The translations under genes were made by a program, and so were the position numbers. 39,960 nt of DNA. Origin: Accumulibacter sp. GTDB taxonomy: Bacteria > Pseudomonadota > Gammaproteobacteria > Burkholderiales > Rhodocyclaceae. This document shows positions 1-28,508 of the stretch, piece after piece; within the stretch, counting starts at the first letter, position 1; every line of letters starts with the position of its first letter. The stretch is from assembly GCA_020049495.1 (NCBI GenBank), contig JAIFKU010000031.1, positions 1-39,960 of the forward strand, written 5' to 3'. Below the pieces are notes generated by a model. The model saw only the letters and a program-made list of their open reading frames with translations, was not told the origin of the DNA and did no database searches.

Positions 1-5
1 TGAAA

Positions 6-19
6 CCCGACTTTGACAC
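6..19 (+). repeat. Left terminal inverted repeat of the IS
   Basis: CCCGACTTTGACAC, the exact reverse complement of 1878-1891. The similarity stops after 14 bases. Confidence 0.88.
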
Positions 20-109
20 CGCCAAGTAACACGCTCCTCGGAAAGCCGCATGGCGCAAGGCATTCGGCGAAGATGCCGAAATGGGTGTGTATCTAGGCGA
101 GAATAGTGC

Positions 110-1795
110 TCAATCCAGATTCAAGATTGGTTTTGGCGGCTTTATTTTCAGTGCTTTCAATCGGTTAGCGGCATCCGGCGAAGGCTCGGTCACCTGCCAG
201 ACACGACCATGGGGGCTAAACAATAGCGCCAGTTGGACCCGTTTCAGATCATCCCGGATAGTGCGCCACGTATCCTGACACGCGTGCTCGATGGTGCGTT
301 CAAGCAACAGGGACAACACCGTGATAGCGATGTGGGCATGAATGCGATGCGGCGCCCAGTGGAACACCGGACGCATCTTCAATCCGCTCTTCATGGTCCG
401 CCAGGCTTCTTCCACCCGCTGCTGCTGTTTGTAACCGAGCGCCATGTCTTCCGCCGTGAGCGTGTCGTCGTTACTATGCACGACGAACTTGCCGTCGAAT
501 CGTTCCAGTTCGGCGATGGCCTGTCGGTCGATCGCCAGCCCCTGCTTTGTCTCCTTCAGCAAGCGCCCGTAGCGTGCGCTGGTGCGCAAGGCGCAAACCC
601 GTTTCGTGTGGCCCTCTTTGGCCAGATCGGACAGGCTGGCCAGTTCCGCCTCCAACTCGTTCAAGAGTTCTTCCCGATGCGACTTCTGACGCGTGGCTTC
701 CAGCGGATTGAAACAGACCGCATAGCGTCGCCGTCGCTCACCCTCACCGACGATGACCTCCTTGACCTCCAGATTCTCGGCGACGGTGCGATAGCGCCCC
801 GGACGCGAGAGCACGTCCTCGGTGACTTCGTCACCACAGCGCATCGGCATCGCCAGCAGGTACTTTCCGCCGCCCTTGGATAGTGCTTGCAAGTTGGCCT
901 GCGAGACCATTCCGGCATCGCCGACGAAGAGGCAGCGGGTGAGTTGCCAACCGCGCAGGTCGTCCTTGACCCGGGCAACTGTGGTGACGTCGACCGTGTT
1001 GCCGGGAAACACCCAGTGGCGCACCGGGAATCCGTCCCGGGTGACGGCCATGCCGACCACGATCTGCGGTACGTCGCCGCGGCCGTTCTTGCTGTGACCA
1101 CGCTTGCGGGGAGCGGCGTAGAGCTTCTTGCCTGCCGTCGCACTGCCGTGAACCTGGCCATCCTTGTCGCCTTCGTCTTCCGCATCGATTTCGAAGTGCA
1201 GCGAGGTGGTGTCGTAGAAGATCACCTCCACGTCGAGATTGAGCAGGTCGGCCACGCGGTGGAAGATGGCTTGCTCGATGGCGTCCTTGTTCGCTTCCAG
1301 GAAGTCCATGGCGCGGTAAAGCTGGTGCAGTTTCAGATCCTGCGTCCCGTCGATATGGGCGTCTTCTTTGAGCCACTGTTCATGGCAGTAGAGTTTCGAG
1401 GCCGGGGCGCAGGCACGGTTAGCGACCAAGGCAAACAGAGCCCGCTCGACATCGAAGCCGAGATGCCGCGTGCCAGCCTGCTGCCGCACGATGGCGTCGA
1501 TACCTAGCTGCTTCCAGATGGCTTCGAGGACGTAGAGGTCGCCGTAGGGCCAGGCGCAGATCAGCCGCCAGTCGCCGCCGGCATCGACGATCTCTTCCGG
1601 CGAGCATCGGCGCAGGATGCTCTTGGCCAGTCGTCGCAGACGTTCAACCACTTCGGGATCGTCGCCTCGCCCGCAGTTGTGGACAATGCTCGCTTGCGAC
1701 CTTCCCTTGGCGGCATCCCAGACATTCTCCGCCAGTTGCAGGTAGGTCACGACGCTGCCATCCGCCCGCCGTTGTTTGCTCTCGCGTAGGTACAT
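110..1795 (-). CDS. IS1634-family DDE transposase
   Basis: A 561-residue cut-and-paste transposase of the IS4/IS1634 group that acts on the 14 bp ends of its own element. The RNase H-like DDE core is visible: a first Asp in DTTSLHFEI near residue 195, a second in VGDAGM near 294, and the Glu in a YKQQQRVEEAWRTMKSGL segment near 475, followed by an RPVFHW stretch typical of this family. The length is usual for the family and no stop or frameshift breaks it. The start is ATG at 1795, only about 80 bp from the right end. Several long ORFs in other frames of this GC-rich gene are shadows. The catalytic residues were assigned by eye. Confidence 0.9.
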   Translation of the reverse strand: MYLRESKQRRADGSVVTYLQLAENVWDAAKGRSQASIVHNCGRGDDPEVVERLRRLAKSILRRCSPEEIVDAGGDWRLICAWPYGDLYVLEAIWKQLGIDAIVRQQAGTRHLGFDVERALFALVANRACAPASKLYCHEQWLKEDAHIDGTQDLKLHQLYRAMDFLEANKDAIEQAIFHRVADLLNLDVEVIFYDTTSLHFEIDAEDEGDKDGQVHGSATAGKKLYAAPRKRGHSKNGRGDVPQIVVGMAVTRDGFPVRHWVFPGNTVDVTTVARVKDDLRGWQLTRCLFVGDAGMVSQANLQALSKGGGKYLLAMPMRCGDEVTEDVLSRPGRYRTVAENLEVKEVIVGEGERRRRYAVCFNPLEATRQKSHREELLNELEAELASLSDLAKEGHTKRVCALRTSARYGRLLKETKQGLAIDRQAIAELERFDGKFVVHSNDDTLTAEDMALGYKQQQRVEEAWRTMKSGLKMRPVFHWAPHRIHAHIAITVLSLLLERTIEHACQDTWRTIRDDLKRVQLALLFSPHGRVWQVTEPSPDAANRLKALKIKPPKPILNLD

Positions 1796-1877
1796 GGGCC
1801 CTATCGTAGAGCCTACGGGCTCCGAAAATCAACAATCCATGTATCTAGGGTTTTGGCGGCTCAATGCCCGGAAACCC

Positions 1878-1891
1878 GTGTCAAAGTCGGG
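1878..1891 (-). repeat. Right terminal inverted repeat of the IS
   Basis: GTGTCAAAGTCGGG, the exact reverse complement of 6-19. It is followed directly by TGAAA (1892-1896), the second copy of the presumed target duplication at 1-5. Confidence 0.88.
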
Positions 1892-1986
1892 TGAAACGCG
1901 CCGCGTTAATGTTGGTAAGGCCGGAACAAAATTCTCACTGCAACGAACCGACCGAGTATCGAACTCATACTAACCAGGAGATAAAA

Positions 1987-2322
1987 ATGCTCAAGAACAT
2001 CATCGCTTTTGCCGTCGCTGCTACATTCGGTTCCCTTGTTTTCGCCCAGGCTCCTGCCGCTGCTCCGGCCAAACCGGTTGAAGCCGTCAAGCCGGCTGTT
2101 GCGTCTCCGGCCCCTGCTGCCCTTGCCCCGGTGGTAACTCCGGCCGCCAAACCGGCCGTCAAGGCCGAAGAAAAGAAGGACGCCGTAAAGGGTGAGAAGA
2201 AAGCCAAGGTAAAACAAAAGGCAGCGAAGAAGACTGAAGCGTCACCGGTCGCCACGCCTGCCGCAACTGCCGCACCCACACCGGCCGCAGCCTCCGCTGC
2301 CGTTCCGGCGGCAAAGAAGTAA
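1987..2322 (+). CDS. Small exported Ala/Pro/Lys-rich protein
   Basis: A 111-residue protein of unknown function. Residues 1-20 form a Sec signal peptide (MLKN, hydrophobic core, VFA-QA cleavage). The rest is low complexity: Ala/Pro/Val stretches with repeated AKPV or AKPAV units, a Lys-rich middle (about 60-85) and an Ala/Pro tail. A basic, disordered periplasmic or envelope-associated protein is expected, somewhat like histone-like or cell-wall-linked Ala/Lys/Pro proteins, but I do not recognise a defined family. The start is fixed by AGGAG at 1976-1980 ahead of ATG 1987; an upstream in-frame start at 1864 would enter the IS. The gene is monocistronic and ends before a strong terminator. Its promoter region lies within 100 bp of the IS end, so the insertion may have altered its expression. 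Confidence 0.7.
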   Translation: MLKNIIAFAVAATFGSLVFAQAPAAAPAKPVEAVKPAVASPAPAALAPVVTPAAKPAVKAEEKKDAVKGEKKAKVKQKAAKKTEASPVATPAATAAPTPAAASAAVPAAKK

Positions 2323-2370
2323 TCGCGAGCAATAGTAGCTGCGCGGTCCGGCTCGCCGGGCGGGGCAACG

Positions 2371-2405
2371 AAAAGGGGAGGCCGGATATGCGGCCTCCCC
2401 TTTTT
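2371..2405. terminator. Bidirectional rho-independent terminator
   Basis: A hairpin with arms GGGGAGGCCG and CGGCCTCCCC, a short loop, A residues on its left and TTTTT on its right. It sits between the convergent genes ending at 2322 (plus) and 2430 (minus) and can serve both strands. Confidence 0.9.
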
Positions 2406-2429
2406 GCCGATCAGGATTCTGCGCTGGTC

Positions 2430-2876
2430 TTACTTTGCCTTGTCGACCAGGAAACTCACCGCTGCCTTGAGTTCGGCATCACTCAGATCAGCCGCACCAC
2501 CCCTCGGCGGCATGGCATTCTTGCCGTTGATCGCAGCCTTGAGCAGTGCGGCATTGCCGGTGGCAATCCGAGCTGCCCAAGCCGGTTTGTCGCCCGTCTT
2601 CGGTGCGCCAGCCAGACCAGCTTCATGGCAGGCCTTGCAGATCGAGTTGTAAATCGTCGCTCCGTCACGCGGTTTGCCATCGGAGATGGCGACGGCCTTT
2701 TGCATTTCCACCCGGGCGACGGGCTGGATGCGCAGTTCGGCGTCATCACTGTTGTCTGTTTTGGCGCCGCCCTTGCCGAGCATGGAAAGTGGCCAGATGA
2801 CAACAATCAGGACGATGGCCACGACAATGGTGATGAGCATGATTTTCTGCGAAGAGTATGGCTGCTTGTTATCCAT
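2430..2876 (-). CDS. Membrane-anchored class I cytochrome c (c5-like)
   Basis: A 148-residue monohaem electron carrier. A single membrane segment at about 12-32 (IMLITIVVAIVLIVVIWPL) anchors it to the cytoplasmic membrane with the haem domain in the periplasm. The haem-binding motif is C80-K-A-C83-H84, and M122 in NAMPPRGG is the likely sixth iron ligand. The AMPPRGG segment and the short C-terminal helix resemble the cytochrome c5 family. Likely role: passing electrons between respiratory complexes and a terminal oxidase or reductase; the partner is not shown by the neighbours. It is convergent with the upstream Ala/Pro-rich gene and separated from the flavin reductase gene by 77 bp on the same strand. 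Confidence 0.85.
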   Translation of the reverse strand: MDNKQPYSSQKIMLITIVVAIVLIVVIWPLSMLGKGGAKTDNSDDAELRIQPVARVEMQKAVAISDGKPRDGATIYNSICKACHEAGLAGAPKTGDKPAWAARIATGNAALLKAAINGKNAMPPRGGAADLSDAELKAAVSFLVDKAK

Positions 2877-2953
2877 TGTGGTTTCCCGGTTGATCTGCGA
2901 GCAAGTTCAATTCTAATTGATGCGCCGCAATCCTGCAGTTTTCCTGAGCGGAT

Positions 2954-3550
2954 TCAGCCGCCAGCCTTGCCGGCGTCAAGCTGGCAGTAGCGGCCGTTAT
3001 GGAAGAGCAGTGGCAACATGGCCTGGCCCTCGGCAAAACGCTCAACACGTCCGACAAAGATAAGGTGATCGCCACCCGGATAATGCGCCTCGTTCGTGCA
3101 TTCGAAACCGGCGCAGCAGCCTTCGATCAATGGCACGCCGCCAAGTCCAGCGAACCAGGGAATGCCCTCGAAGCTTTTGTTGCTGCGCGAAGCGAAGCGG
3201 TCGGAGATTGCCTGCTGGTCGACGGAAAGCACATTGACCGCGTAGTGGCTTGCATTACGGAAGGCTTCCAGATTCGGCGAACTCAGTGACAGGCTCCAGA
3301 GAATGAGTGGTGGCTCGAGCGAAACCGAGTTGAACGAACTGATCGTTACGCCGATCGGCTCTCCATCCGCTGAGCGTGCGCTGACAACGGTTACGCCGGT
3401 CGCAAAGCGGCCAAGCGTGCTGCGAAAATCGCGGCAGCAGTCGTTTTTGGACGAGGCAGGGCCGCGCCCGCTAGCGCCAGTCGGGTTGGACGGGTCGACA
3501 ACAGCCGTCGCCATCTCGGGGGTGTGCGCAGAAGCGCTGGTGTGGGTCAT
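2954..3550 (-). CDS. Flavin reductase-like (FMN-binding split barrel) protein
   Basis: A 198-residue protein of the flavin reductase / DIM6-NTAB family. Family members use NAD(P)H to reduce FMN or FAD, often for a partner monooxygenase. The fold's landmarks are present: FRSTLGRFATGVTVVSA (about 41-57), the flavin-loop segment GVTISSFNSVSLEPPLILWSL (about 66-86), and HLIFVGRVERF near the C-terminus. The first 35 residues are Ala/Pro/Ser-rich and not conserved in the family, so an internal start is possible; the annotated ATG at 3550 has GGAT-like purines upstream only. No monooxygenase gene is adjacent, so the partner is unknown. Confidence 0.8.
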   Translation of the reverse strand: MTHTSASAHTPEMATAVVDPSNPTGASGRGPASSKNDCCRDFRSTLGRFATGVTVVSARSADGEPIGVTISSFNSVSLEPPLILWSLSLSSPNLEAFRNASHYAVNVLSVDQQAISDRFASRSNKSFEGIPWFAGLGGVPLIEGCCAGFECTNEAHYPGGDHLIFVGRVERFAEGQAMLPLLFHNGRYCQLDAGKAGG

Positions 3551-3620
3551 CGGGCGATCCGGGTGAAATAAGGAGGCATGCTAAGATCGGTTCTGTTCAC
3601 AGAAGTTCAGGAGTTTCGTG

Positions 3621-3761
3621 ATGCTGTCGGTATCCATTGGCTACGTTCAGAACACTGTGGCAAGCGGCGTTGCATCAACCGAATTATCGCCTTGCAGCCC
3701 TTGGCTGTCGAGACACTTGAACAATCCTGCTGTTTTTCGCCGGTGCGTGCATGAGCGATGA
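3621..3761 (+). CDS. Possible 46-residue leader peptide overlapping mutY
   Basis: A short ORF with a strong ribosome-binding site, CAGGAG at 3608-3613, seven bases before ATG 3621. It encodes 46 residues (MLSVSIGYVQNT to VHER) and stops at 3759-3761, inside the first codons of mutY, which starts at 3751. The mutY start has no obvious Shine-Dalgarno sequence of its own, so ribosomes ending this ORF could restart on mutY (translational coupling). The peptide resembles no family I know. It may be real, or it may only be a ribosome landing site. Confidence 0.4.
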   Translation: MLSVSIGYVQNTVASGVASTELSPCSPWLSRHLNNPAVFRRCVHER

Positions 3762-4812
3762 TGCGTTTTCAGCCTGCCTGATTCGCTGGCAACAGAAACA
3801 CGGGCGCCATGACCTGCCCTGGCAGCAGACACGCGACGCCTATCGCATCTGGCTTGCCGAGATCATGCTGCAGCAAACACAGGTCAGTACGGTTATTCCG
3901 TATTACTCCCGGTTCCTCGAGCGTTTCCCGACGATCGAAGCACTGGCCCGGTCAGCGCTTGAACCGGTGCTCGAGCTCTGGGCCGGTCTGGGCTATTACG
4001 CTCGGGCGCGCAACCTGCATCGCTGCGCACAGGTCATTGTTACCGATTGCGCTGGCCAGTTCCCGAAAGAAGCACAAGCCATCGCCGAATTGCCGGGCAT
4101 CGGCCGCTCCACAGCGGCGGCCATCAGTGTGTTTGCCTTCGGGCAGCGTGCAGCAATTCTCGACGGCAACGTCAAGCGTGTTCTGGCGCGTTGTTTTGGC
4201 ATTGAGGGTTTTCCCGGCTCGGCGACTACGCAAAAGGAAATGTGGCGGCTGGCCGACGCGCTGCTGCCGGCCAGAAACATTGGGGCTTACACGCAAGGCT
4301 TAATGGATCTGGGCTCGACGCTGTGCAGCCGGCGCAAGCCATTCTGCAATGCCTGCCCGATGCACGAAATCTGCATTGCCCGGCGCGAAGGACGGCAGGC
4401 CGAATTACCCGTTGCCAAACCAAGAAAAGTGCTGCCTGAACGCGAAACAGGCCTGCTGATACTTACGGATGGAAATCGTGTGCTTCTTGAACGTCGGCCA
4501 CCGGCAGGCATCTGGGGCGGACTGCTGACCCTGCCCGAAGGCGGCGTGGCCGAAGCACGAGAGTTAACTCGGCGTTACGGTTGCCGACTGCTGGCGATGC
4601 AGGCCTTGTTGCCGTTCAGGCACACCTTCAGCCATTTTCACCTGCACATTCAGCCGCTGCTCTGCCGTGTCGAGGTAAAGACCCGGCTGGTGGCCGAAGC
4701 CGGCTGGCAGTGGCTTGAATATGAAGCGATCGAAACGGCGGCGCTGCCGGCACCGATCAGGTTCTTGCTCAGGACGATGGCGCAGAGGGTGGGACAGGAA
4801 GCGCAAGAATAA
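3751..4812 (+). CDS. mutY: Adenine DNA glycosylase MutY
   Basis: A 353-residue base-excision repair enzyme that removes adenine mispaired with 8-oxoguanine. Catalytic E37 (LAEIMLQQTQV) and D138 (ILDGNVKRV) fall at the same positions as in the E. coli enzyme. The helix-hairpin-helix is LPGIGRSTAAAI (114-125). The 4Fe-4S cluster ligands are C192, C199, C202 and C208 in the C-X6-C-X2-C-X5-C pattern. The C-terminal NUDIX-like 8-oxoG recognition domain (about 230-345) is present. Length is normal. It overlaps the short ORF at 3621-3761 and is convergent with the following regulator gene. Confidence 0.97.
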   Translation: MSDDAFSACLIRWQQKHGRHDLPWQQTRDAYRIWLAEIMLQQTQVSTVIPYYSRFLERFPTIEALARSALEPVLELWAGLGYYARARNLHRCAQVIVTDCAGQFPKEAQAIAELPGIGRSTAAAISVFAFGQRAAILDGNVKRVLARCFGIEGFPGSATTQKEMWRLADALLPARNIGAYTQGLMDLGSTLCSRRKPFCNACPMHEICIARREGRQAELPVAKPRKVLPERETGLLILTDGNRVLLERRPPAGIWGGLLTLPEGGVAEARELTRRYGCRLLAMQALLPFRHTFSHFHLHIQPLLCRVEVKTRLVAEAGWQWLEYEAIETAALPAPIRFLLRTMAQRVGQEAQE

Positions 4813-21652: not shown

Positions 21653-21994
21653 ATGTTCAGAGCTATCCTTCTGCAGGTGGCGGCAACAGTATTGACAACG
21701 CTGGCAGCGGGTTGGTTGGTGGGAACGCGGGGGGCAATTTCGGCAGCATTAGGTGGGGTGGTGTGTACCCTCCCCAATTTTTTGTTTGCCTTGCGCCTGA
21801 AGTTCGTGGCGAGTCGCCCCGGAGCTTCATACCCGGCCAATTTCTTCCTTGGCGAAATGGTCAAGATTGCAGCAACAATCGGGTTGCTGGCGTTTGTTGT
21901 AAATGAGTACGCCGATCTGCACTGGCCTTCCATGCTGATCGGACTGGGGCTTGCACTGCAAGCAGGTTTTTTGGCTTTTTGGAAAAAGTCCTGA
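21653..21994 (+). CDS. atpI: ATP synthase accessory protein AtpI
   Basis: A 113-residue membrane protein with four predicted helices (about 4-22, 27-47, 65-84 and 88-108). The GAISAALGGVVCTLPNFLFA segment is typical of AtpI (ATP synthase subunit I), which helps assemble the c ring. First gene of the atp operon, with only two bases between its stop and the atpB start. Confidence 0.88.
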   Translation: MFRAILLQVAATVLTTLAAGWLVGTRGAISAALGGVVCTLPNFLFALRLKFVASRPGASYPANFFLGEMVKIAATIGLLAFVVNEYADLHWPSMLIGLGLALQAGFLAFWKKS

Positions 21995-21996
21995 TC

Positions 21997-23174
<1,178 letters not shown>

Positions 23175-23213: not shown

Positions 23214-23635
23214 GTGAATCTGAATGCAACTCTGTTCGCCCAGATCGTTGTGTTCTTCATTCTGGCGTGGTTCACGATGAAGTTCGTGTGGCCGCCCATC
23301 ATGAAGGCGCTCGACGAACGTGCGACAAAGACGCCGCCAGGCATTCGGCAGAAACCATGCGCGAAGGCAAGGATAAGGTCGCCGAGATCATTGCCCAGGC
23401 CGAGAAGCGAGGGCAGCAAATCATCGAGGATGCCAAAGTGCAGGCCAGGCTTGAAGCCGACAAGGTGGTTGCCGGTGCCAAGGCGGAGATCGAACAGGAA
23501 GCGGCGCGGGTTAAGGAATCGTTGCGCGAACGTGTGGCCGAACTGGCCGTTGCCGGCGCCGAGAAGATCCTGCGGCGCGAAGTCGATGTCCGTGCGCATG
23601 CCGAGATGCTGTCCACGATCAAACAGGATCTCTGA
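23214..23635 (+). pseudogene. atpF: ATP synthase Fo subunit b, frameshifted by an apparent deletion
   Basis: The gene is in two frames. From GTG 23214 the first frame gives a normal membrane anchor ([20 protein letters not shown], then [14 protein letters not shown]) and turns into nonsense after about residue 39 (23330). The rest of subunit b continues in another frame ([21 protein letters not shown] and onward) to a proper C-terminus, MLSTIKQDL, with stop at 23633-23635. The joined length is 422 nt against 471 for a usual 156-residue AtpF, so about 49 nt (16 codons plus one base) appear to be missing near 23325-23345, from the tether helix. As written, the first frame would run to 23648 and make a 144-residue chimera without the delta-binding domain. 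Either a real mutation or an assembly error; the rest of the operon is intact. Confidence 0.9.
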
Positions 23636-23640
23636 CGCTC

Positions 23641-24177
23641 ATGGCTGAATCTGTCACCATCGCTCGTCCCTATGCCCAGGCTGTTTTTCGTCTGGCGCGT
23701 GAAAGCAAGGCGCTTGGGGTCTGGTCGGAACGGCTGCAACGGCTTGCAGCCATTGCGCAAGATGCCGGGATGACCAAAGTCGTCGGTAATCCAAAGTTTT
23801 CCGCCGGGCAGGTCACCGATCTGTTTGTTTCTCTCACCGGCGAAGCCGGCAACCCGGAACTGATTTCCTTTGTCGGTCTTCTGGCCGAGAACGAGCGGCT
23901 CAATGTGCTGACGCAAATCCAGGAAATCTACGAGCAACTCAAAAGCGCAGACGAGGGAGTCAAGGATGCCGTTGTGACCAGCGCCTATGCTCTCGACGAT
24001 GCACAACTGAAAAATCTGATGAGCCAGCTTGAATCGCATTTCGGCAGCAAACTCCAGCCTCGTGTCGAGGTGGATGCAGCGCTGATTGGCGGGATCAGGG
24101 TGGCTGTAGGTGACCAGCTACTCGATGCTTCCGTTCGCGGCAAGCTTGACGCAATGGCCACGGCGCTTAAGAACTAG
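23641..24177 (+). CDS. atpH: ATP synthase F1 subunit delta
   Basis: A 178-residue peripheral-stalk subunit joining subunit b to the top of the F1 head. The N-terminal [14 protein letters not shown] (8-21) is the family signature; near the C-terminus [32 protein letters not shown] is well conserved. It starts five bases after the atpF stop, so the shifted first frame of atpF would overrun its start codon. Confidence 0.96.
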
Positions 24178-24186
24178 GAGAAATGC

Positions 24187-25725
24187 ATGCAATTGAATCC
24201 TTCCGAGATCAGTGAACTGATCAAGAACAAGATTCAGAATCTGGATGTGGGCGCTGAAACCCGTACGCAGGGTACTGTCGTCTCGGTGACTGACGGCATC
24301 TGCCGGATACACGGCCTGGCCGACGTGATGCAGGGCGAAATGCTCGAATTCCCGGGAGGAACCTTCGGCATGGCGCTTAATCTCGAGCGCGACTCCGTCG
24401 GGGCGGTGGTTCTCGGCGAATACGAGCAGATTACCGAAGGCGACACGGTCAAGACGACCGGGCGCATTCTTGAAGTTCCGGTCGGTCCGGAACTGCTTGG
24501 TCGCGTGGTCAATTCGCTCGGCCAGCCGATTGACGGCAAGGGCCCGATCAACGCCAAACTGAGCGACAAGATCGAGAAAGTCGCGCCGGGCGTGATCTGG
24601 CGCAAGTCGGTTTCGCAGCCGGTGCAGACGGGTTTGAAGTCGATCGACGCAATGGTTCCGATCGGTCGCGGCCAGCGCGAACTGATCATCGGTGATCGGC
24701 AGACCGGCAAGACGGCAGTGGCCGTCGATACCATCATCAATCAAAAGGGCAAGAACCTGATTTGCATCTACGTGGCCATCGGTCAGAAGGCCTCGACCGT
24801 GGTCAACGTGGTGCGCAAGCTCGAAGAGCACGGGGCCATGCACTACACCATCGTGGTCGCGGCTACGGCGGCCGAGTCGGCGGCCCTGCAATTCATTGCC
24901 CCCTACTCCGGCTGTACCATGGGCGAATACTTTCGTGACCGCGGGCAGGATGCGCTGATCATTTATGACGATCTGACCAAGCAGGCCTGGGCCTATCGCC
25001 AGGTCTCGCTGCTGCTGCGTCGCCCGCCGGGGCGCGAAGCCTATCCCGGCGACGTGTTCTACCTGCATTCACGCCTGCTTGAACGCGCCGCCCGTGTTTC
25101 CGAAGCCTGGGTCGAGAAGTTCACCAATGGCGAGGTCAAGGGCAAGACCGGTTCGCTGACGGCGCTACCGGTGATCGAAACGCAGGCCGGCGACGTATCC
25201 GCCTTTGTTCCGACCAACGTTATTTCGATAACCGACGGCCAGATCTTCCTCGATACCGATCTCTTCAATGCCGGTGTGCGTCCGGCCATCGACGCCGGGA
25301 TCTCGGTGTCGCGCGTGGGCGGCGCAGCGCAGACCAAGGTAATCAAGAAGCTCGGCGGCGGCGTACGCCTGGCGCTCGCCCAGTACCGCGAACTGGCGGC
25401 TTTCGCCCAGTTTGCTTCCGATCTTGACGAAGCGACGCGCAAGCAGCTTGATCGCGGTCGCCTGGTGACCGAACTGATGAAGCAGCCGCAGTACGCACCG
25501 ATGGCCGTTTCCGAAATGGCCATCACGCTGCATGCGGTCAACAAGGGATTTTTCGACGATGTTGAAGTGAAGAAGGCGCTTGATGTCGAGAAGCAGATGC
25601 ACGCTTTCGTCAAGCAGAAATACGCCGCCCTCGTCAGCAAGATCGAGACGAGCAAAGAACTTGATGCTGACGCCGAGCAGGAACTGACCAAGGCGATCGG
25701 GGAGTTCAAGGCCATGCTGGCCTGA
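24187..25725 (+). CDS. atpA: ATP synthase F1 subunit alpha
   Basis: A 512-residue non-catalytic nucleotide-binding subunit. The Walker A motif [15 protein letters not shown] is near residue 170, the arginine finger lies in the conserved [17 protein letters not shown] segment near 375, and length is standard. An AGGAG lies at 24176-24180, six bases before the ATG. Confidence 0.98.
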
Positions 25726-25743: not shown

Positions 25744-26610
25744 ATGGCAAGCGGCAAGGAAATCCGTAACAAGATCAAGAGCGTTGAAAGCACGCGCAAG
25801 ATCACCAAGGCCATGGAGATGGTGGCTGCATCGAAAATGCGCAAGGCGCAGGATCGGATGCGCGCCGCGCGGCCCTATGGCGAGAAGATCCGGCGTATTG
25901 CCGGGAACCTCTCACATGCCCTGACCGACTACAGCCATCCCTTCCTGGAAAAGCGCGACGAGATCAAGGCGGTTGGCTTGCTGACGGTAACTTCCGACAA
26001 GGGGCTTTGCGGCGGCCTGAATACCAATATCCTGCGTCTGGCCCTGGGCCGGATGAAGGAGTGGGACGCCGAAGGCAAAAAACTGCAGGTGAGCGCCATC
26101 GGCAACAAGGGTTTCGCCTTCATGATGCGCACCGGTGCCAATCTCGTGTCGCATGTGGTGGGTCTGGGCGATACGCCGCATCTGGAAAAACTGATCGGGC
26201 CGGCCAAGGTACAGATCGACGCCTATATCAACGGCGAGATCGACGTTCTGTACATCGCCTATACCCGTTTCATCAACACCATGAAGCAGGAGCCGGTGAT
26301 CGAACAGATGTTGCCGCTCTCCGGCGATCTGGTCGGCTCTACCAGTCGTAACCGCTGGGATTACATCTACGAACCGGATGCAAAGCCAGTCATCGACGAC
26401 CTGCTGTTGCGTTACGTCGAAGCGATCCTGTATCAGGCGGTGGCCGAGAACATGGCGTCCGAACAGAGCGCACGCATGGTAGCCATGAAGTCGGCTTCGG
26501 ACAATGCCAAGAACGTGATCGGCGAGCTCAAGCTGGTTTACAACAAGGCACGCCAGGCCGCGATTACCAAAGAGCTTTCGGAAATTGTCGGCGGCGCAGC
26601 GGCCGTCTGA
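25744..26610 (+). CDS. atpG: ATP synthase F1 subunit gamma
   Basis: A 288-residue central-stalk subunit. The N-terminal helix [20 protein letters not shown] and the matching C-terminal helix [33 protein letters not shown] form the coiled-coil shaft; [12 protein letters not shown] (about 84-95) is a family hallmark. Eighteen bases after atpA. Confidence 0.98.
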
Positions 26611-28047
<1,437 letters not shown>

Positions 28048-28082: not shown

Positions 28083-28508
28083 ATGCCACTCAGAGTTCAT
28101 GTTGATGTTGTCAGTGCCGAAGAACTGATTTTCTCCGGCGAGACCGACTTTGCGGTGTTCCCCGGCGAGGCCGGCGAACTGGGCATCTATCCGCGTCATA
28201 CGCCGCTGCTGACCCGCATCAAACCGGGTACTGTGCGCCTGAAGATTCCCGGCCGGGAAGAATATGAGCTGGTCTATGTTTCCGGCGGTATTCTGGAAGT
28301 GCAACCGACATTGATTACCCTGCTTGCCGACACGGCGATCCGCGCCCACGATCTGGACGAGGCGAAGGCCATCGAAGCCAGGCAGCGTGCCGATGAAGCG
28401 CTGAAGAATCGCGCTGCCGATGTCAGTTATGCCTCAGCCGAAGCCGAACTCGCTCAGGCCGTGGCCCAGTTGCAGCCGATCAAGAAAGGGCGCAAGCGCC
28501 ACCACTGA
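28083..28508 (+). CDS. atpC: ATP synthase F1 subunit epsilon
   Basis: A 141-residue subunit with the N-terminal beta-sandwich ([34 protein letters not shown]) and a C-terminal two-helix arm that can inhibit ATP hydrolysis. ATG 28083 follows GGGGAAGGAAA. It ends the atp operon and is convergent with the following minus-strand gene at a distance of 19 bases; no terminator hairpin is seen in that gap. Confidence 0.96.

What the first reader, a model, noticed from the sequence alone, without database searches (positions are those of the whole stretch)
23214..23635. Subunit b of the ATP synthase is broken by an apparent 49 nt deletion
Seen: the membrane anchor and the stalk/C-terminal part of AtpF lie in different frames, and the joined gene is 422 nt against about 471 for a 156-residue AtpF. 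A loss of 49 nt explains both the shortening and the direction of the shift. All eight other atp genes are intact and the order is normal. Subunit b is needed for F1Fo, so a fixed deletion would make this an ATP-synthase-defective lineage, or require frameshifting or a second atpF copy. An assembly collapse between short GCC-rich repeats is an equally simple explanation.
Basis: partly seen in the sequence, partly recalled or inferred. Interest (0 to 1): 0.75.

Follow-up and report, generated by a model that had tools for sequence, protein, structure and literature searches.

The report
Broken atpF from a metagenome misjoin
The gene for ATP-synthase subunit b really is broken in this sequence, but the break sits exactly where the genome assembler appears to have stitched two pieces together, so the bacterium very probably has an ordinary working gene.

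Summary
atpF has 39 codons (23214-23330) in one frame and 100 codons (23333-23632) in another, and is 49 nt shorter than the 156-codon gene of relatives. No second atpF was found in the 85% complete genome. In the genus, 24 of 28 genomes hold a full-length atpF; the window's is the only one with an internal break.

The cause is very probably assembly, not evolution. In a sample of the window's genome and of a same-genus genome, G016, contig ends share exact runs of 91 nt (11 pairs within the first, 3 within G016) and no exact shared run exceeds 91, as expected of one de Bruijn graph with k = 91. The last 91 nt of a G016 contig equal window 23241-23331, so the atpF break lies at a graph-vertex boundary. 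A second gene of the same genome, read as carbamate kinase, is broken with the same geometry. An N-gap in G016 is 47-61 nt too short against 8 relatives, the size class of the 49 nt lost here. The atpF 3' part remains under purifying selection. No reads were available. I score it an artefact.

The parts
23214..23330 (+). atpF 5' part: GTG start, membrane anchor and tether, 39 codons
   Evidence: (PF00430 positions 1-34)
23241..23331 (+). 91-mer identical to the last 91 nt of contig C295 of same-genus genome G016 (the base before it differs): read as a de Bruijn vertex at k = 91
23331..23332 (+). junction at which 49 nt (relative to relatives) are missing; coincides with the right edge of the 91-mer
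23333..23635 (+). atpF 3' part: 100 codons plus stop, in the other frame
   Evidence: (PF00430 positions 52-131)
21653..21994 (+). atpI, intact (PF03899)
21997..22866 (+). atpB (subunit a), intact (PF00119)
22926..23174 (+). atpE (subunit c), intact (PF00137)
23641..24177 (+). atpH (delta), intact (PF00213)
24187..25725 (+). atpA (alpha), intact
25744..26610 (+). atpG (gamma), intact (PF00231)
26647..28047 (+). atpD (beta), intact
28083..28508 (+). atpC (epsilon), intact (PF02823, PF00401)

Best explanation
The 49-nt gap is a local assembly error. The start of atpF is unusually alike in DNA between species of this genus. In one metagenome assembly with final k = 91, the window's species and the G016 species shared the 91-mer at 23241-23331, and both upstream pieces ended there. 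For the window's genome a later joining step attached the downstream piece directly to that end, losing the intervening 49 nt without inserting Ns. The living cell most likely carries an ordinary 156-codon atpF. Shown: the coincidence of the break with the shared terminal 91-mer, the 91-nt signature in both genomes, a second gene broken with the same geometry, and one N-gap too short by about 50 nt. Inferred: that both genomes come from one sample, that the window's upstream piece once ended at the vertex, and which program step made the join.
For: Exact 91-nt runs at contig ends: 11 pairs within the window's genome (9 end to end, 2 end to interior), 3 within G016, 1 between the window and G016; no exact shared run over 91 nt in 79 stretches (1.02 Mb) of the first and 50 stretches (0.49 Mb) of the second. 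The break lies at the right edge of the shared 91-mer. A carbamate kinase gene (name read by eye; Pfam gives AA_kinase) in contig C3 of the same genome changes frame at the right edge (425|426) of the 91-mer that ends contig C45, with 16 nt missing against an intact G016 homologue. A 24-N gap in an Rnf-Nqr family gene of G016 is 47-61 nt too short in the 8 relatives with both flanks. In the atpF 3' part pN/pS is 0.16-0.28 against six relatives, versus 0.10-0.23 among those relatives. 24 of 28 genus genomes have full-length atpF. Chen et al. 2020 (PMC7111523; abstract and passages seen) say that local assembly errors and scaffolding gaps propagate incomplete or incorrect protein-coding sequences.
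Against: No reads were available, so the junction was not tested directly. The joined sequence carries no Ns, although the same assembly does insert short N runs (6, 17, 24), so a join without Ns must be assumed. The first 91-mer after the junction was not found as the end of any other held contig, so the second edge of the presumed join is not identified. A real deletion would itself create a branch at the same base; it would then need the shared run to equal k by chance, in both genes. DNA alignment places the carbamate kinase gap 4 bases from the vertex edge; the protein reading places it at the edge. One other vertex running through a contig (C64 with the end of C46) and one vertex interior to two contigs (C46 and G016 C19) gave no frame test. 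Only part of either genome was sampled.
Confidence: 0.95

Rival explanations
1. A real, recent 49-nt deletion inactivated atpF in this population, leaving an ATP-synthase-defective (fermentative) lineage or a minor mutant strain that happened to be assembled.
For: The contig is continuous without Ns, the frame break is real in the sequence, and no second atpF is found in the 85% complete genome. A real deletion would also make a graph branch at this base. pN/pS of the 3' part is slightly above the range among relatives for two of six comparisons beyond or at the top.
Against: The shared run with G016 is exactly 91 nt. From 93% local identity I estimate a few per cent chance of this under a real deletion, and the same coincidence occurs at carbamate kinase. 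No direct repeat at the deletion edges. The atpF 3' part is not decaying and the other operon genes are intact.
Confidence: 0.035
2. Programmed or occasional ribosomal frameshifting joins the two frames into a shortened b subunit.
For: The two parts overlap in open reading frame around the junction.
Against: Even a perfect shift would lack about 16 of 156 residues of the stalk that are present in each of the 21 intact relatives read. I see no slippery heptamer of the usual X XXY YYZ kind at 23320-23345 by eye (motif recalled). No other of the 28 genus genomes has such an arrangement.
Confidence: 0.005
3. Assembly collapse between short GCC-rich repeats inside atpF.
For: The stretch after the junction is GCC-rich.
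Against: The bases flanking the gap do not repeat each other in relatives, and the break is placed by a shared 91-mer with another genome's contig end.
Confidence: 0.01

Closest known systems
atpF, F-type ATP synthase subunit b (Pfam PF00430)
   Same: Both parts match the family in order, in the normal atpI-B-E-F-H-A-G-D-C gene order.
   Different: 49 nt missing at the join, so the frame is broken.
Local assembly error or wrong scaffold join in metagenome-assembled genomes (Chen et al. 2020, PMC7111523; abstract and passages seen)
   Same: Gene broken at a place where a contig of a related genome ends. The paper says coexisting closely related strains confuse de Bruijn assemblers and that uncorrected assembly errors and scaffold gaps put incorrect gene sequences in databases.
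   Different: The passages seen describe unsupported sequence, wrong Ns and wrong repeat counts; a join that silently loses 16-49 nt at a k-mer vertex is my reading of these data.

Membership tests
Intact F-type ATP synthase subunit b (PF00430) | One continuous frame of about 156 codons covering anchor, tether, dimerisation and delta-binding parts | tested here: not met
   Two parts in different frames, 49 nt short
Intact F-type ATP synthase subunit b (PF00430) | Position between atpE and atpH in an atp operon | tested here: met
Pseudogene fixed by deletion | Relaxed selection in the broken gene | tested here: not met
   pN/pS of the 3' part 0.16-0.28 against 0.10-0.23 among relatives: at most slightly raised; cannot exclude a very recent loss
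Pseudogene fixed by deletion | Deletion present in the reads | not testable with these tools
   No reads held
Assembly misjoin | Break coincides with a contig end or graph vertex of the same assembly | tested here: met
   Right edge of the 91-mer that ends G016 C295; k = 91 inferred from 14 exact 91-nt runs at contig ends within the two genomes and no longer run. That both genomes come from one assembly is inferred
Assembly misjoin | Similar breaks elsewhere in the same assembly at such vertices | tested here: met
   Carbamate kinase in C3 at the vertex ending C45: one further coding case found, broken; one further such vertex (C64) and one vertex interior to two contigs gave no frame test
Assembly misjoin | No read supports the joined sequence | not testable with these tools
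   No reads held

The most novel reading that the evidence does not exclude
A recent real deletion has knocked out F1Fo ATP synthase in a betaproteobacterium of the Accumulibacter-like group, a natural lineage or subpopulation living without oxidative phosphorylation.
Probability: 0.03. Interest if true: 0.55.

Novelty: not a real feature. Interest (0 to 1): 0.06.

Why it matters
Taken at face value, the record would suggest an organism without ATP synthase. Instead it shows how a conserved stretch shared by neighbouring species can make an assembler silently drop a few tens of bases from a core gene. A check for breaks at exact k-mer overlaps with other contig ends could flag such false pseudogenes in metagenome genomes without reads.

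Tried and rejected
Chimera between species: G010 is the nearest relative on both sides of the break (86.3% and 86.9%); the order below it differs somewhat, and G016 has no counterpart downstream. No clear switch of species is seen. Second atpF or second F-type operon: in the window's genome PF00430, PF00231 and PF00119 ring only in the window's own operon. Other genomes sharing the short version: of 395 family genomes (drawn from a larger group), 106 matched a 371-base query at E 1e-40 and only the window's own at 100%. Plasmid collection: three distant partial hits only. N-gap in L152: no genome of the genus but G016 itself matched, so its true size was not measured. The 17-N gap in C20 lies in repeat-like DNA without a clear gene and says nothing about gap size. 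Paper searches for subunit-b shortening gave no passage on tolerated deletion length; only reference titles and a domain description were seen. In one search the loci on the minus strand were aligned unturned, so only its plus-strand rows are meaningful; one search repeats the alignment correctly. In one search the atpB start was set one codon late, which does not affect the result used.

Full report
What is there. The window is one whole contig (C60, 39,960 bases) of a draft genome of 3.46 Mb in 178 contigs, 85% complete. It holds an atp operon in the order I-B-E-F-H-A-G-D-C. atpF starts with GTG at 23214. Its first 39 codons and its last 100 codons are in different frames. Relatives have 156 codons; the homologous stretch is 1305 bases in four of the closest relatives against 1256 here, a difference of 49, and the atpF alignment shows one gap of 49.

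How common is it. PF00430 was sought in the 28 held genomes of the genus. 24 have a full-length match; the window's genome has two pieces; G016 has one piece cut by the end of a contig; G008 and G012 have none. The window's genome has no second atpF and no second gamma or a subunit.

The clue. The contig of G016 ends at exactly the base after which the 49 nt are missing in the window, and its last 91 bases are identical to window 23241-23331, the base before being different. I then read 79 stretches of the window's genome (1.02 Mb, window included) and 50 of G016 (0.49 Mb) and listed all exact shared runs of at least 70 bases. Exact runs of 91 at a contig end occur in 11 pairs within the window's genome (9 end to end, 2 end to interior) and in 3 pairs within G016. 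Four further runs at contig ends are shorter (83, 85, 87, 89). No run exceeds 91. Between the two genomes there are two runs of exactly 91: the atpF one and one interior to two contigs. This is the signature of a de Bruijn graph with k = 91, and it makes both genomes look like products of one assembly (inference). Window 23331|23332 is then a vertex boundary of that graph.

A second case. Besides atpF, two contigs of the window's genome run through a 91-mer that ends another contig. One (C64, with the end of C46) shows no clear gene at that place. The other (C3, with the end of C45) lies in a gene on the minus strand that I read as carbamate kinase; Pfam gives the amino acid kinase family for its first part. 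By the protein reading its frame changes at 425|426, the right edge of the 91-mer 335-425; the DNA aligner puts the gap 4 bases away. The homologue in G016 is intact and has 16 nt more at this point. So both coding cases found, atpF included, are broken at the vertex edge, with the same geometry and with a loss that is not a multiple of three.

Gap sizes. The same assembly inserts short N runs. One, 24 N in an Rnf-Nqr family gene of G016, can be measured against relatives: they have 47, 47, 47, 54, 54, 58, 61 and 61 nt more between the flanks than the sequence with its Ns (8 of the 9 genomes searched matched). Some of this may be natural length variation of the protein end, and it is a single case. 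If gaps are underestimated by about 50 nt, a true gap of 49 would be estimated near zero and joined with no N. That last step is inference; the assembler is not known. The first 91-mer after the junction is not the end of any other held contig.

Real deletion or artefact. A true deletion would also create a branch at this base. But the shared run would then have to start exactly 91 bases upstream by chance. With 93% identity to G016 over the last 410 bases and 96% between C3 and C45 over 304, I put that at a few per cent each, so well under one per cent for both. The deletion edges show no direct repeat when relatives stand in for the lost part. The 3' part of atpF has pN/pS 0.16-0.28 against six relatives, against 0.10-0.23 among them: slightly higher, but not that of a decaying gene. 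Frame comparison with G010 and G014 over the collinear stretches shows no other broken gene.

Why here. The start of atpF is unusually similar in DNA among the six closest relatives: identical synonymous codons in 90% of comparisons for codons 1-20 and 80% for 21-40, against 47-73% in the rest of the gene. Synonymous differences between the window and six relatives are 0.04-0.38 per site in codons 1-39 and 0.42-0.61 in the 3' part. This makes a shared 91-mer between species likely at this place.

Literature. The abstract and passages of Chen et al. 2020 (PMC7111523) say that local assembly errors and scaffold gaps lead to incomplete or incorrect protein-coding sequences in public databases, and that coexisting close strains confuse de Bruijn assemblers. 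None of the four searches listed a paper on this locus; they were not aimed at it by name.

Lineage. So the group is probably Accumulibacter-like Betaproteobacteria (inference from equal lengths and labels).

Verdict. A correct observation of a broken gene, explained with high confidence as an assembly misjoin at a k = 91 vertex. Ordinary; low interest.

Noticed in passing
23214-23273 and 24187-24246: The first 20 codons of atpF and of atpA stand out in synonymous conservation among six close relatives (0.90 and 0.91 identical synonymous codons, against 0.46-0.81 in the other 20-codon blocks of atpB, E, F, H and A); for atpA also 0.82 against more distant relatives. Possibly a translation-start or RNA constraint.
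   Followed up: partly
L181 220-1214 (contig C3 of the window's genome): Amino acid kinase gene (read as carbamate kinase) with 16 nt missing at the edge of a shared 91-mer; contig C45 ends there and is 96% alike over 304 nt, so the bin may mix two strains.
   Followed up: yes
window 1-91: The first 91 bases of the window equal the last 91 bases of contig C24 of the same genome (L236), and the window's last 87 bases overlap contig C14 (L192), so these contigs are probably neighbours in the assembly graph.
   Followed up: no
G012 (same genus, unnamed, 95% complete): No match for subunits a, b or gamma of ATP synthase; either the operon's contig is missing from the bin or the operon is lost.
   Followed up: partly
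G014 contig C10, bases 598-4550: A second, divergent F-type ATPase gene set (a, b and gamma matches) besides the normal one.
   Followed up: no
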